In this document: positions 1 to 41,664 of the stretch, in pieces | Numbering within the stretch: position 1 is the stretch's first letter | How the letters are laid out: every line of letters begins with the position of its first letter | Source: Oscillospiraceae bacterium | GTDB lineage: Bacteria > Bacillota > Clostridia > Oscillospirales > Acutalibacteraceae | Reading direction: 5' to 3' | Assembly (NCBI GenBank): GCA_015066095.1 | Contig: SVPC01000013.1 | Location: 1-46,915, forward strand | DNA: 46,915 nt | Notes under the pieces: generated by a model | Told to the model about the DNA's origin: nothing | What the model saw: the letters and a program-made list of their open reading frames with translations, nothing else | Databases searched by the model: none | Translations under genes and position numbers: made by a program

Positions 1-355
<355 letters not shown>

Positions 356-749: not shown

Positions 750-1727
750 TTATCCTAAAATAACTATACCTGCAATTACCATCGCGATAACCACATAATG
801 CTTCCATGACATCTTTTCTTTTAAGAAGATTCTGCTCCAAAGAACCGATATCGCACAATAAGCCGAAATAATTACCATGCCGGCAGAGAAATCGCTAAAC
901 ATAACCGCCATATAGAACACTTGACCGATGGTTTCGCACAGTCCGCCCCAATACAAAGTTGTGTTGCCTTTAAATATATTTTCCCGTTTAACGAACTTAA
1001 CCCATATAAACGCAAAAATAGCCAAAATAAAGAAGGTTAACTCAAAAGCGGAGTTTGCGGCGTAGTCGCTCAACTCAATTTGGGTTTTACCGATAAACCA
1101 ATCGGAAAACAAGAATTCATCGCCCACCGTTCCGAGCGCATCTATTATAAGGTATGAAATCGGAAGCAAGAACGCTAATATACTTTTTGTATATTTTCGG
1201 TTTGCTTTTTCTTGTCTTGCTTTTTTAACTTCATCATCTTCCCTTTGTTCAACAAAACCAAGCGCCACTATGCCTATGGTTATCATAGAAATACCGATAA
1301 TTGTGCTTATTGTTATATCGTCGGTAGACGCCAAGCCGAAAATCACACACAATATAAATGCCAATGCACCCGAAGAATTACATATCGGCGAAGAAATCGA
1401 AAGTTCAATATAGCGAAGACCTATGTAACCAAGAACCATCGCAAATATGTAAAGCGCTGCAATCGGCAAATAGTAAACAAAGTCCATAAGTTTAAAATCG
1501 GTATAAAAAAGGCTTGAAACTATTTTATGAACGCCGTCAACACCAACCGTGTTATCTATTATCGCGCCACCGATAAGGGTAATGAAAAAATGCAAACCCA
1601 TTATAAAACCAACGGCGAAAACCACTTTCCAATGGCTGTTTTTGTCGCGTTCGCGGGTGCCCATTTTTGAAAATAGGTCGGAACCACTCCAACAAAGTAA
1701 TGCTAAAATAGAAAAAATGTAATACAT
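750..1727 (-). CDS. DMT/EamA-type multispanning membrane transporter
   Basis: About 325 residues, almost entirely hydrophobic with roughly ten predicted membrane segments in two halves. This is the size and layout of drug/metabolite transporter (EamA) proteins, which export or import small metabolites. The C-terminal half ends in an EamA-like stretch (LWSRIFLKEKMSWKHY then a final helix). A basic/acidic loop (EQREDDEVKKARQEKANRK) divides the halves. The frame opens three codons earlier at a GTG, but that GTG lies inside the ribosome binding site AGAGGTG, so I start at the ATG. Substrate unknown. It lies downstream of parB on the same strand but is separated by a 14-bp palindrome, so it is probably its own unit. 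Confidence 0.75.
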   Translation of the reverse strand: MYYIFSILALLCWSGSDLFSKMGTRERDKNSHWKVVFAVGFIMGLHFFITLIGGAIIDNTVGVDGVHKIVSSLFYTDFKLMDFVYYLPIAALYIFAMVLGYIGLRYIELSISSPICNSSGALAFILCVIFGLASTDDITISTIIGISMITIGIVALGFVEQREDDEVKKARQEKANRKYTKSILAFLLPISYLIIDALGTVGDEFLFSDWFIGKTQIELSDYAANSAFELTFFILAIFAFIWVKFVKRENIFKGNTTLYWGGLCETIGQVFYMAVMFSDFSAGMVIISAYCAISVLWSRIFLKEKMSWKHYVVIAMVIAGIVILG

Positions 1728-1804
1728 TCTTTTCACCTCTTGTAAAAAATAAATCTTTCAATATATAAAACTTATTTTTTTCTTGGAGGTGGTCTACGCC
1801 TGAA

Positions 1805-1818
1805 CACCCTGCAGGGTG
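1805..1818. repeat. Perfect 14-bp palindrome between parB and the transporter
   Basis: CACCCTGCAGGGTG is a perfect palindrome, followed on the plus strand by CTAATTTTTT. It is downstream of parB (minus), yet the T-run lies on the plus side, so it is not a clear parB terminator. It could be an operator of the transporter gene or a weak bidirectional terminator. Confidence 0.4.
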
Positions 1819-1846
1819 CTAATTTTTTAAGTCTTTTTGTCATATA

Positions 1847-2692
1847 TTATTCCGCTAACCTTTTTGCGAAGTCGGATAATTCCTCATCGCTAAAAAATTC
1901 TATTGTGATTTTGCCTTTTCCCTCGCCTGTGGGGGTTATAACCACCTTGCGATGCAATTCATTTTTAAGTGAAAGCTCAACTTCGCTGTAAAATGTATTT
2001 TTCTTTGCCGGTGCGGGTGGAGTTGACTTTTCTTTTTTGATTTTAGATGCAAACTTTTCGAGTTGACGGACTGACGCTCCGTTTGTAGCCATCTCAAGCA
2101 TTTGTTTTCTTGCTTTCTCATCTTCAACCGAGAGCAGAGCGCGCGCATGACCTGCCGAAATAACACCCATACGAAGTGCTTGTAATTCGTCATCTGTTAA
2201 ATTGAGCAATCGCAACGCATTTGTAACCGCGGTGCGCGATTTACCCATACGCTTTGCAACTTCTTCTTGTGTGAGTCCAAAAGCATCTATAAGTGAACGA
2301 TAACCGAGCGCTTCTTCAACAGCGTTCAAATCTTCGCGCTGAAGATTCTCGATAAGCGCCAATTCCATAAGTTCCTGCTCATCGGCATCCTTTATGATAA
2401 CGGGGACCTGATAAAGTTCTGCCATGCGGCAAGCACGCCAGCGTCTTTCACCCGCAATTATACTATATCTACCATTTGTTTCAGGCTTAACCACAATAGG
2501 TTGTATAAGACCGTGCTCTGCTATGCTTTCAGCAAGTTCTGAAAGTGCCTGTTCATCAAAATCCTTACGCGGCTGTGCGCGGTTAGGCTCGATATCATTA
2601 AGATTGACGGTTATAACGCCACCCTCATCTGCCGAATTTTCATTAAATAAAGAATCAAGACCTCTGCCGAGTCCGCCTTTTTTAACTGCCAT
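1847..2692 (-). CDS. parB: Chromosome-partitioning protein ParB (Spo0J)
   Basis: 281 residues. ParB binds parS, hydrolyses CTP, spreads as a sliding clamp and loads SMC. The N-terminus (MAVKKGGLGRGLDSLF) is the basic ParA-interacting segment. The CTP-binding region has GERRWRA at residues 81-87 and ENLQREDLN at 115-123. A helix-turn-helix (TQEEVAKRMGKSRTAV) lies at about 141-156, and the C-terminal dimerisation domain follows a linker near 210-225. The start follows the parA stop with one base between them, so the pair is co-transcribed. Two perfect parS sites lie 0.8 and 1.3 kb upstream. Confidence 0.97.
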   Translation of the reverse strand: MAVKKGGLGRGLDSLFNENSADEGGVITVNLNDIEPNRAQPRKDFDEQALSELAESIAEHGLIQPIVVKPETNGRYSIIAGERRWRACRMAELYQVPVIIKDADEQELMELALIENLQREDLNAVEEALGYRSLIDAFGLTQEEVAKRMGKSRTAVTNALRLLNLTDDELQALRMGVISAGHARALLSVEDEKARKQMLEMATNGASVRQLEKFASKIKKEKSTPPAPAKKNTFYSEVELSLKNELHRKVVITPTGEGKGKITIEFFSDEELSDFAKRLAE

Positions 2693-27534: not shown

Positions 27535-27563
27535 ATTATATCATTAAATTCAAAGATAAGCAA
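27535..27563 (-). promoter_or_regulatory. Sigma-A promoter of the CLC-GH2 unit
   Basis: Minus strand TTGCTT (27558-27563), 17 bp, TATAAT (27535-27540). It leaves a leader of only about 20 nt, too short for a fluoride riboswitch. Confidence 0.7.
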
Positions 27564-27564
27564 T

Positions 27565-27592
27565 AAAAAAAGCACATCCTTGCGGATATGCT
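27565..27592 (-). terminator. Second terminator behind tRNA-Gln (outer)
   Basis: Minus-strand AGCATATCC - GCAA - GGATGTGCT followed by TTTTTT. One pair is U-G in this direction but would be a C-A mismatch the other way, so it is oriented minus. It closes the tRNA-trailing element. Confidence 0.8.
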
Positions 27593-27597
27593 TTTTG

Positions 27598-27750
27598 TTG
27601 GCTGGGGCACAAGGATTCGCCGTCTGCTTCGCATACTGTTTCGCTTGTCGACCCAATGCCTTGCATTCGGTACCCGACTGCGCGCTCTTCGCTAAAAACA
27701 GTCCACAGGACTGTTTTTTACGCTTCAGACCTTCTCAGGTTCGAATCCTT
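27598..27750 (-). repeat. tRNA-trailing hairpin element A (behind tRNA-Gln)
   Basis: On the minus strand, after the tRNA-Gln terminator, an inverted T-arm copy (AAGGATTCGAACCT, 27737-27750) opens the element. It contains a perfect 11-bp hairpin (AAAAACAGTCC / GGACTGTTTTT, 27694-27718) and several GCGAA/GAAGC motifs. It closes with a 22-nt exact copy of the tRNA-Gln 3' end including CCA (27598-27619 equals 27801-27822). The two ends can pair (AAGGATTCG / CGAATCCTT). No coding capacity is credible. It resembles element B in plan but not in full sequence. Confidence 0.75.
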
Positions 27751-27760
27751 TTATTGTTGA

Positions 27761-27798
27761 TAAAAATTCAGGAACCAACCTAAAGGTTGATTCCTGAA
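27761..27798 (-). terminator. Terminator of tRNA-Gln (inner)
   Basis: Stem TTCAGGAA-CAACC / GGTTG-TTCCTGAA with one mismatch and a 4-nt loop (27767-27798), followed on the minus strand by TTTTTA. Confidence 0.85.
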
Positions 27799-27801
27799 AA
27801 T

Positions 27802-27876
27802 TGGCTGGGGCACAAGGATTCGAACCTTGAAATGACGGAGTCAGAGTCCGTTGCCTTACCGTTTGGCGATGCCCCA
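27802..27876 (-). tRNA. tRNA-Gln (anticodon CTG)
   Basis: 75 nt with encoded CCA. Acceptor TGGGGCA/TGCCCCA, D arm GCC/GGC, anticodon arm ACGGA-CTCTGAC-TCCGT giving CTG, T arm CAAGG-TTCGAAT-CCTTG, discriminator G. All stems pair. It has its own near-consensus promoter and two downstream terminators bracketing element A. Confidence 0.95.
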
Positions 27877-27895
27877 ATATTTAATTAACAAGAAT

Positions 27896-27923
27896 ATTAT
27901 ACCCCTTTTTAAAAATATGTCAA
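27896..27923 (-). promoter_or_regulatory. Promoter of tRNA-Gln
   Basis: Minus strand TTGACA (27918-27923), 16 bp, TATAAT (27896-27901): both hexamers perfect. Confidence 0.85.
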
Positions 27924-27943
27924 GAAAAATTTTAAAAAACACC

Positions 27944-27972
27944 TTGAAAAACCTATAGATTTATGTTAATAT
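27944..27972 (+). promoter_or_regulatory. Promoter of tRNA-Ala
   Basis: TTGAAA (27944-27949), 17 bp, TAATAT (27967-27972), ending ten bases before the tRNA. Confidence 0.75.
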
Positions 27973-27982
27973 ACATACGTTC

Positions 27983-28058
27983 GGGGGCGTAGCTCAGCTG
28001 GGAGAGCGTTTGACTGGCAGTCAAAAGGTCATGGGTTCGATCCCCACCGTCTCCACCA
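27983..28058 (+). tRNA. tRNA-Ala (anticodon GGC)
   Basis: 76 nt with encoded CCA. Anticodon arm TTTGA-CTGGCAG-TCAAA gives GGC. The alanine identity pair G3-U70 is present. D arm GCTC/GAGC. In the T arm (ATGGG-TTCGATC-CCCAC) the outermost pair is A-C, a small defect, but all other stems are sound. Reading frames on the opposite strand are artefacts. Confidence 0.94.
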
Positions 28059-28104
28059 AGCACACAAGTCCAATCTTTATGGTTGGTGTTGTGTGCTTTT
28101 TTAT
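28058..28104 (+). terminator. Terminator of tRNA-Ala (inner)
   Basis: Stem AAGCACACAA (28058-28067) / TTGTGTGCTT (28089-28098), with a smaller CCAA/TTGG helix in the loop, followed by TTTTTTA. Confidence 0.85.
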
Positions 28105-28108
28105 TTGT

Positions 28109-28239
28109 GGTGGGGATCGAACAAGGAGGGAGCGAAGCGGAAGAAAATAACCTAAATGGTTGTTTTTGCCGACGTGGCAACGAGCGAAGCGAGGCGATAG
28201 GCGCGGGAGCGCCGAGATAAATCCCCACCGTCTCCACCA
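28109..28239 (+). repeat. tRNA-trailing hairpin element B (behind tRNA-Ala)
   Basis: Opens with an inverted copy of the tRNA-Ala T arm (GGTGGGGATCGAAC, 28109-28122, against 28035-28048). It contains GAGCGAAGCG repeats, an AACC/GGTT hairpin running into GTTTTTGCC, and a GGCGCGGGAGCGCC hairpin. It ends with a 19-nt exact copy of the tRNA-Ala 3' end including CCA (28221-28239 equals 28040-28058). The ends can pair (GGTGGGGAT / ATCCCCACC). Same order of parts as element A, including a terminator on each side. Confidence 0.75.
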
Positions 28240-28243
28240 TTTT

Positions 28244-28286
28244 AAAGAATCGCAGAATCTTCCGGTTTTGCGATTCTTTATTTTTT
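28244..28286 (+). terminator. Second terminator behind tRNA-Ala (outer)
   Basis: Stem AAAGAATCGCA (28244-28254) / TGCGATTCTTT (28269-28279) followed by ATTTTTTG. It closes element B. From here to the next promoter (28394) I see nothing further. Confidence 0.85.
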
Positions 28287-28393
28287 GTACAAAAGGGGTC
28301 GAACACGAGAGGTTTTTGGCGTGATTTAATATGTATCGGTTAGAAAGTACATAAAGTATAAAAAACACGAAAAGTTTTTATGTGGTTAAACTA

Positions 28394-41393: not shown

Positions 41394-41664
41394 GTACGCT
41401 GTGAAAGTATGGCGTAAAAACATGCGTTGATGCAGGAGGTGGCCCGTCGAGAACGGGGAAATTTCTGCGGAGTATGTCCGATTTTAAACCGGGCGAAAGA
41501 ATTAGGAGTACATAAGGAAACTTGCGACCTTGTGTACAACGGCAAGCGATTTGCCGTCCGGAATTGACTGTGACCCCAGCAATCCGGTTTTATATTGCGC
41601 AGTGATGAAAAACACGGCGCGGTGTAAGTTTTGCCCGCCAACTATTAAAGGAGGCGAATTTCAC
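41394..41664 (+). promoter_or_regulatory. Structured 270-nt leader of the S10 operon
   Basis: Contains consecutive stable stems: CCCGT/ACGGG (near 41446-41459), GTACATAAGG (41508-41517) with CCTTGTGTAC (41528-41537), ACGGCAA/TTGCCGT (41539-41557), and CCGGAATTG (41558-41566) with CAATCCGG (41580-41587). Long S10 leaders control the operon through L4 in some bacteria. I do not recognise the exact Rfam class. A reading frame through it lacks a ribosome binding site and is rejected. Confidence 0.6.

What the first reader, a model, noticed from the sequence alone, without database searches (positions are those of the whole stretch)
27983..28286. tRNA-Ala carries the same modular trailer, built from its own T-arm and 3' end
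Behind tRNA-Ala the order is identical: terminator, inverted T-arm of this tRNA (28109-28122), GC-rich insert with GAGCGAAGCG repeats and two hairpins, 19-nt exact copy of this tRNA's 3' end with CCA (28221-28239), second terminator. The inner sequence differs from element A, but the parts and their order match, each customised to the adjacent tRNA. Two divergent neighbours showing the same customised plan is hard to explain by chance and suggests a family whose ends are copied from, or must match, the host tRNA.
Basis: partly seen in the sequence, partly recalled or inferred. Interest (0 to 1): 0.75.

Follow-up and report, generated by a model that had tools for sequence, protein, structure and literature searches.

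The report
Gene-free inserts tailored to host tRNAs
Behind some of this bacterium's tRNA genes sit short gene-free DNA inserts whose two ends match whichever tRNA they follow, while their structured middles have moved between different tRNAs; how the ends come to match each new host tRNA is unknown.

Summary
Behind tRNA-Ala(GGC) lie a terminator, X' (14-nt inverted T-arm), a ~100-nt structured core E, X (19-nt exact copy of tRNA positions 58-76) and a second terminator. The same plan stands behind 9 of 34 tRNAs of this genome, X' alone behind a tenth; core matches occur in 29 of 60 genomes, own included, and units follow tmRNA in Lachnospiraceae. The core covaries and its closing stem is X':X. 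Cores changed tRNA host 36 times on a 62-row tree (shuffled mean 40.5), yet the ends follow the present tRNA. At tRNA-Arg(TCT) the unit [terminator-X'-E-X], about 180 bp, lies between the tRNA and a trailer found next to the tRNA elsewhere. Best reading: a gene-less, site-specifically integrating unit using the tRNA T-loop/3' end, moved by a recombinase in trans. The genome has no RT-family match and two tyrosine recombinases. No Rfam 15 match. How X and X' change together on a new tRNA is unexplained; that is the novelty.

The parts
27983..28058 (+). host gene tRNA-Ala(GGC); positions 58-76 (28040-28058) are the host copy of X
   Evidence: ARAGORN; Rfam RF00005
28059..28108 (+). proximal terminator and spacer of the unit (T)
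   Evidence: inverted repeat I5 plus T-run; that the terminator belongs to the unit is inferred from Arg-TCT orthologs
28109..28122 (+). X': inverted T-arm of tRNA-Ala; tailored part is the complement of positions 59 to about 67
   Evidence: 14-nt perfect inverted repeat; tailoring test
28123..28220 (+). core E (family 1), structured; helices e.g. 28144-28152/28158-28166, 28168-28170/28193-28195, 28201-28204/28209-28212
   Evidence: alignment A1 and pair counts; RNA fold z -4.66
28221..28239 (+). X: exact copy of tRNA-Ala positions 58-76 with CCA; pairs with X' as closing stem
   Evidence: helix 1
28240..28286 (+). second, probably older terminator
   Evidence: inverted repeat I6; order inferred from Arg-TCT orthologs
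28294..28323 (+). decayed X' and first bases of a family-2 core: remnant of an older unit
   Evidence: local alignment to the elements of L037 and L034, scores 42 and 44; shuffle control against L037 only, maximum 30
27802..27876 (-). host gene tRNA-Gln(CTG)
27598..27750 (-). family-2 unit behind tRNA-Gln: X' 27750-27737, core 27736-27620, X 27619-27598; terminator before it at about 27801-27759
   Evidence: weak match to R1 at 27604-27752, E 7.6e-4; RNA fold z -3.77

Best explanation
Each trailer is a gene-less integrative unit of about 180 bp, [T-X'-E-X], which as a circle would read X-T-X'-E. Shown: X is the 3' part of the tRNA from the T-loop on; the core E folds into a conserved multi-helix structure closed by X':X; cores are shared between different tRNAs while the ends match the present one; at Arg-TCT several units lie between the tRNA and a trailer that is next to the tRNA in other genomes; units occur in small arrays with decayed remnants lying distally. 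Inferred: the crossover lies in the T-loop at positions 56-59, as for known tRNA-integrating elements; the unit supplies a terminator so that the tRNA stays intact and terminated; a recombinase acts in trans, since no gene is carried; the X:X' stem offers it a double-stranded copy of the T-arm half-site when the unit is single-stranded. Not explained: how X and X' change together when a core passes to another tRNA.
For: Direct repeat from the T-loop to CCA and the same order at 9 of 34 own tRNAs. Arg-TCT: the terminator behind the unit is like the tRNA-adjacent one of another genome at 0.98 (L276 vs L287) and 0.95 (L301 vs L287), where 167 stretches behind other tRNAs reach at most 0.74 and 0.73; L300 vs L278 aligns with score 62, next best 34-39. 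Arrays: two units in L017, two complete and one truncated in L147, further cases. Core structure: 93.8% of cells paired vs 36.6-43.0% when slid, 22 of 35 pairs with changes on both sides. 36 host changes on the core tree. tmRNA is used as well, as expected if the T-loop half of a tRNA-like gene is the site. The genome has two tyrosine recombinases, 345 and 298 aa.
Against: No integrase, transposase or other gene lies in the unit, no helper was identified and no free circle was seen. The junction and a core pattern were not found in viral contigs, nor the element in plasmid or phage records. Known integrative elements keep one tRNA target, so free change of host tRNA is not predicted. Of 15 Arg-TCT loci with a readable second terminator, 4 have two like terminators; of the other 11, three have a firm source for the distal one (L276, L301, L300), two a weak one (L293 0.83 against 0.79 and L303 0.79 against 0.77 for other tRNAs), and six none. 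L287, the comparison for L276 and L301, itself carries an X' behind that terminator. The opposite order (unit plus distal terminator arriving behind a native terminator) is not excluded for all loci.
Confidence: 0.58

Rival explanations
1. REPIN-like single-stranded DNA transposition: a Y1 (RAYT) transposase of the host moves the hairpin element, which lands at tRNA T-arms.
For: Two Y1_Tnp matches in G000 (ORFs of 251 and 164 aa) and matches in 38 of 60 genomes, own included; structured element with paired ends.
Against: G001 and G039 have 4 core matches each at E 0.001 but no Y1_Tnp match. The two Y1 loci of G000 are flanked by other repeats; the core was not seen there by eye. REPINs are not tied to tRNA 3' ends (recalled).
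Confidence: 0.12
2. RNA-based insertion: a reverse transcriptase copies the pre-tRNA 3' end (X plus terminator), jumps to the core RNA, and the cDNA is inserted behind the tRNA; X' is a fold-back copy.
For: X starts near position 58/59 and CCA is included, as in tRNA 3'-end primer sites (recalled); in several loci the second copy consists of X plus terminator and ends near the T-run by eye (L081, L116, L128, L159, L180). A sub-threshold Rfam match to RT-17 RNA covers 28089-28184 on the minus strand (20.5 bits, gathering 40.4, E 0.31).
Against: No RVT_1 candidate at all in G000, and matches in only 16 of 60 genomes; X' usually pairs over only 7-11 nt from position 58 on (89 of 107 rows, G-U counted), not as a long copy.
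Confidence: 0.07
3. Host-useful trailer RNA: the unit is a regulatory RNA of the tRNA transcript. In read-through RNA X' seals off the tRNA's own T-arm and the distal X completes the acceptor stem, so the element tunes tRNA output.
For: Predicted fold of 27983-28286: X' pairs with the tRNA's own T-arm and the 5' acceptor strand with the distal X (-130.4 kcal/mol, z -6.25); covarying structure.
Against: Patchy presence at orthologous tRNAs (18 of 30 at Arg-TCT), several different core types at one locus, decayed remnants, and frequent change of tRNA host look like mobile DNA.
Confidence: 0.13
4. Local duplication or scars of large tRNA islands: the trailers are left-over attachment ends or tandem duplications of one locus.
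For: Like terminators on both sides in 4 of 15 Arg-TCT loci; a gene-bearing segment lies between tRNA-Arg(ACG) and repeats of its 3' end in L106.
Against: One conserved, covarying core at many tRNAs; cores shared between tRNAs of different genomes.
Confidence: 0.05

Closest known systems
tRNA/tmRNA-targeting integrative islands with T-loop crossover, e.g. Dehalococcoides ssrA islands (PMC3146451, passages read)
   Same: Direct repeat of the tRNA-like 3' end (20 bp), inferred insertion in the T-loop, tandem accretion, some islands without an integration module
   Different: Those are gene-bearing islands, 16 with a serine-recombinase module, at one target gene; here a gene-less unit of about 180 bp occurs at 18 tRNA isoacceptors and at tmRNA, with an additional inverted T-arm and a terminator
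REPIN/RAYT elements
   Same: Short, gene-less, palindromic, possibly mobilised in trans
   Different: Not bound to tRNA ends and without host-matched ends (recalled); the Y1 loci here carry other repeats
Folded single-strand attachment sites (CTX phage attP, integron attC; recalled)
   Same: Inverted halves could fold into a double-stranded recombination site
   Different: Here the halves differ with the host tRNA. Not tested
Gut-1 RNA (RF01706)
   Same: Palindromic element found behind tRNA terminators in the same group
   Different: It matches outside the units: in L034 between terminator and X' and further on, in L099 behind a tRNA-Gly

Membership tests
tRNA-integrating site-specific element (T-loop type) | direct repeat of the tRNA 3' part starting in the T-loop | tested here: met
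   X = positions 58-76, family 2 from 56
tRNA-integrating site-specific element (T-loop type) | inserted segment lies between tRNA and its former downstream sequence | tested here: met
   Arg-TCT orthologs: firm for L276, L301, L300, weak for L293, L303, no source found for six of 15
tRNA-integrating site-specific element (T-loop type) | encodes an integrase | tested here: not met
   core length 65-126 nt in 74 of 79 units; no room for one in the window unit
tRNA-integrating site-specific element (T-loop type) | excises as a circle | not testable with these tools
   no reads at hand
REPIN/RAYT | cognate RAYT gene flanked by the same repeat | tested here: not met
   the two Y1 loci of G000, read by eye, carry other repeats
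MITE | constant terminal inverted repeats and short target duplication | tested here: not met
   terminal pairs vary with the tRNA (helix 1); the direct repeat is the tRNA end
Retroelement | reverse transcriptase in the genome | tested here: not met
   PF00078 gives no candidate in G000 (95.5% complete)
Known Rfam family | match of the unit at the gathering score | tested here: not met
   none on the units in the window or in 37 loci scanned; sub-threshold only
Integron cassette | attC site and IntI | not tested
   only counts of PF00589 were taken

The most novel reading that the evidence does not exclude
A self-retargeting, gene-less mobile element: the core and terminator pass from one tRNA (or tmRNA) gene to another, and in each move both the inverted half (X') and the direct half (X) are rewritten to the new tRNA as one event, because in the folded single strand they are a single duplex stem. 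A host recombinase such as Xer would then be sufficient for movement.
Probability: 0.3. Interest if true: 0.9.

Novelty: new variant of a known kind. Interest (0 to 1): 0.74.

Why it matters
Integrative elements are thought to be locked to one tRNA because their attachment site must rebuild that tRNA. Here a common core is found at many tRNA isoacceptors and at tmRNA, nearly always with matching ends, in very small units without genes. If the ends are rewritten on insertion, this is an unknown way to choose targets; if they are selected, it shows how a minimal element is kept harmless. Comparison of close strains could tell the two apart.

Tried and rejected
Rfam at permissive E-values on 27560-28340 gave, besides the tRNAs, only matches below the gathering score, RT-17 and GA-cis among them. 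Viral contigs were scanned with two patterns without a match; plasmid and phage records gave none at E 1e-5. A retro-element was considered and set back because RVT_1 is absent from G000. RAYT was considered and set back. PF00589 tells only that 59 of 60 genomes have some tyrosine recombinase. Nearest-neighbour counting of cores gave a weak signal (25 elements: 3 same genome, 5 same tRNA, 17 neither). The first end-matching test selected elements by the match itself and is biased; one search replaces it. One search includes rows in tRNA clusters assigned to the wrong tRNA and served only to see how far X' extends. The letter-shuffle control is too mild for terminators, which resemble each other; one search adds 167 stretches behind other tRNAs. 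Papers: searches on tRNA-associated repeats, MITEs, T-loop integration, REPINs and mobilizable elements, one on Gut-1 and one on folded attP; only listings were seen, and no description of this element was noticed in them, which is not proof that none exists. Passages, not whole texts, of PMC3146451 and PMC3733652 were read. Taxonomic spread: an exact 17-nt junction is in 2 of 391 genomes of the class, own included, and the model in 1 of 398 of the phylum, the own one, with 8 candidates scored per genome, so spread is probably underestimated.

Full report
What is there. The window's tRNA-Ala(GGC) and the divergent tRNA-Gln(CTG) are each followed by terminator, inverted T-arm (X'), GC-rich core (E), exact copy of the tRNA 3' end with CCA (X), and a second terminator. 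In the same genome (G000, 1.32 Mb in 28 contigs, 95.5% complete), 34 distinct tRNAs were checked; X' and X are both present behind 9 (Ala-GGC, Gln-CTG, Gln-TTG, Arg-TCT, Arg-ACG, Ser-GGA, Gly-TCC, Pro-GGG with two units, Leu-CAG) and X' alone behind Lys-TTT. For Ser-GGA the table used a short record; its unit is seen. One tRNA, Pro-TGG, had only 28 nt downstream and could not be judged.

A family. Of the 35 without one, eight in five loci titled Lachnospiraceae or Blautia follow tmRNA, confirmed by Rfam RF00023; in one of these, L153, the core is truncated. Nine lie in contigs titled as non-clostridial and are probably chance; some are near contig ends; others lie away from any tRNA, for example L134, whose tRNA-Arg(CCG) lies 3.8 kb upstream with other ORFs between. 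An extraction over all loci, which requires X within 3 mismatches and a partly matching X', gave 101 units at 18 isoacceptors under 63 genome labels, some of which may be one genome under two names; the units at the rarer isoacceptors were printed. The core model R1 matches 29 of 60 genomes (own included) at E 0.001, 19 of them below 1e-10 (my count from the table), in 6 of 24 genera.

Structure. Fifty family-1 cores with their ends met the limits (length 84-112 nt, three loci excluded there); 41 were aligned, nine left out by hand. Six helices hold: 93.8% of cells pair, against 36.6-43.0% when partners are slid by 1-3 columns; 22 of 35 pairs show changes on both sides, against 11.7 in shuffles. 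Helix 1 is X':X and varies with the tRNA. The window core folds with z -4.66 as RNA; as DNA z is -2.46 on the + strand and -1.48 on the - strand. The covariation cannot tell RNA from single-stranded DNA; G-T pairs outnumber A-C mismatches 20 to 9 on the + strand, a weak hint for that strand. Other core types (family 2 behind Gln, and shorter ones) share the plan but were not modelled.

Tailored ends. Elements were anchored on the core start only, within 140 nt of a tRNA end: 61 elements, 11 tRNA types, 31 distinct X. X' matches its own tRNA at 8.38 of 10 positions (59-68) against 6.65 when tRNAs are shuffled (maximum 7.13 of 2000). The X copy reaches 16 of 18 in 45 of 61; the other 16 give 7-15 of 18 and were not each inspected. 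On a tree of 62 cores the host tRNA changes 36 times, where 9 is the least possible and shuffled labels give 40.5 on average; 1 of 200 shuffles of mine and 5 of 200 of the tool's were as low, so there is some clustering by tRNA, and also by genome (18 changes against 23.2, 0 of 200 as low). The tree rests on 109 columns and is poorly resolved (12 of 59 inner branches starred), but several starred branches join cores from different tRNAs.

Order of insertion. In 61 genomes of the genus, 54 have a match to an Arg-TCT query, some of them to other Arg tRNAs. Thirty Arg-TCT loci were analysed, those with a fetched locus plus L249; 18 are occupied, three of these by X' without a readable X copy, and 12 are empty by script, four of them on short contigs and one, L304, with a possible remnant. 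For three loci the stretch behind the unit is clearly the one that stands next to the tRNA elsewhere: L276 and L301 against L287 (0.98, 0.95; at most 0.74 and 0.73 among 167 stretches behind other tRNAs) and L300 against L278 (alignment score 62 over 51 nt, next best 34 and 39). L293 (0.83 vs 0.79) and L303 (0.79 vs 0.77) are weak. This fits a unit [T-X'-E-X] set between the tRNA and its former trailer. In four loci (L281, L283, L288, L305) both terminators are alike, as in tandem copies; for six (L280, L282, L284, L285, L290, L249) no source was found. In the window the second terminator is followed by a remnant of a family-2 unit, so the family-1 unit next to the tRNA is probably the younger.

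Mechanism. The repeat begins in the T-loop, as inferred for known tmRNA integrations (PMC3146451, passages). A unit that brings a terminator would keep the tRNA transcript normal. No gene is carried. G000 has no RVT_1 candidate, two Y1 proteins whose loci carry other repeats and two tyrosine recombinases of the size of Xer proteins (identity as Xer is inferred from size and not tested). I therefore favour a site-specific recombinase in trans. That the X:X' stem is the attachment site in a folded single strand is a proposal. In a read-through RNA, X' is predicted to pair with the tRNA's own T-arm and the distal X with the 5' acceptor strand, which leaves an RNA role open.

Limits. Most genomes are draft assemblies of unnamed species or MAGs; tandem repeats can be misassembled. 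No expression data were available. The spread outside the genus was sampled thinly.

Noticed in passing
L106:277-1164 (-) and 1414-2187 (+): Between tRNA-Arg(ACG) and repeats of its 3' end lie an ORF that looks like a CRESS-type Rep and an XRE-like repressor (both by eye, not searched); the first repeat is longer than X, and a family-1 unit follows behind it.
   Followed up: partly
L034:570-643 and 1010-1083, L099:6469-6538: Gut-1 RNA (RF01706) palindromes sit behind tRNA terminators in this group; similar hairpin strings ('gtatatcatca', 'gaaatattgc') follow many other tRNA terminators.
   Followed up: partly
L128, L159 and L115 (cores behind Arg-ACG and Arg-CCT), L017 (Pro-GGG): Some cores carry large extra hairpins; a module 'GCGGTCGAAAGTT...AACTTTCGGGCACCGC' recurs in L128, L159 and L017.
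   Followed up: no
G000:C28:25154-25489 (L235) and G000:C16:4212-4601 (L236): Two Y1 transposase-like genes, each beside its own short repeats ('ggggacggttct' and 'ggaacgacc...ggtcgttcc').
   Followed up: partly
window 27953-28306 (-) and 28021-28368 (-): Antisense ORFs through tRNA-Ala and the unit encode a 'GDRTHDLL' type peptide (name recalled), likely a spurious gene call.
   Followed up: no
L084, L101: Two units with Ser-like ends but no tRNA in the fetched stretch share the upstream string 'TTAAGCTGTAAACACAAAAAA'.
   Followed up: no
window 1-355 (-), 41419-41496 (+): Start of a 16S rRNA gene at the contig edge and an S10-Clostridia ribosomal leader.
   Followed up: no
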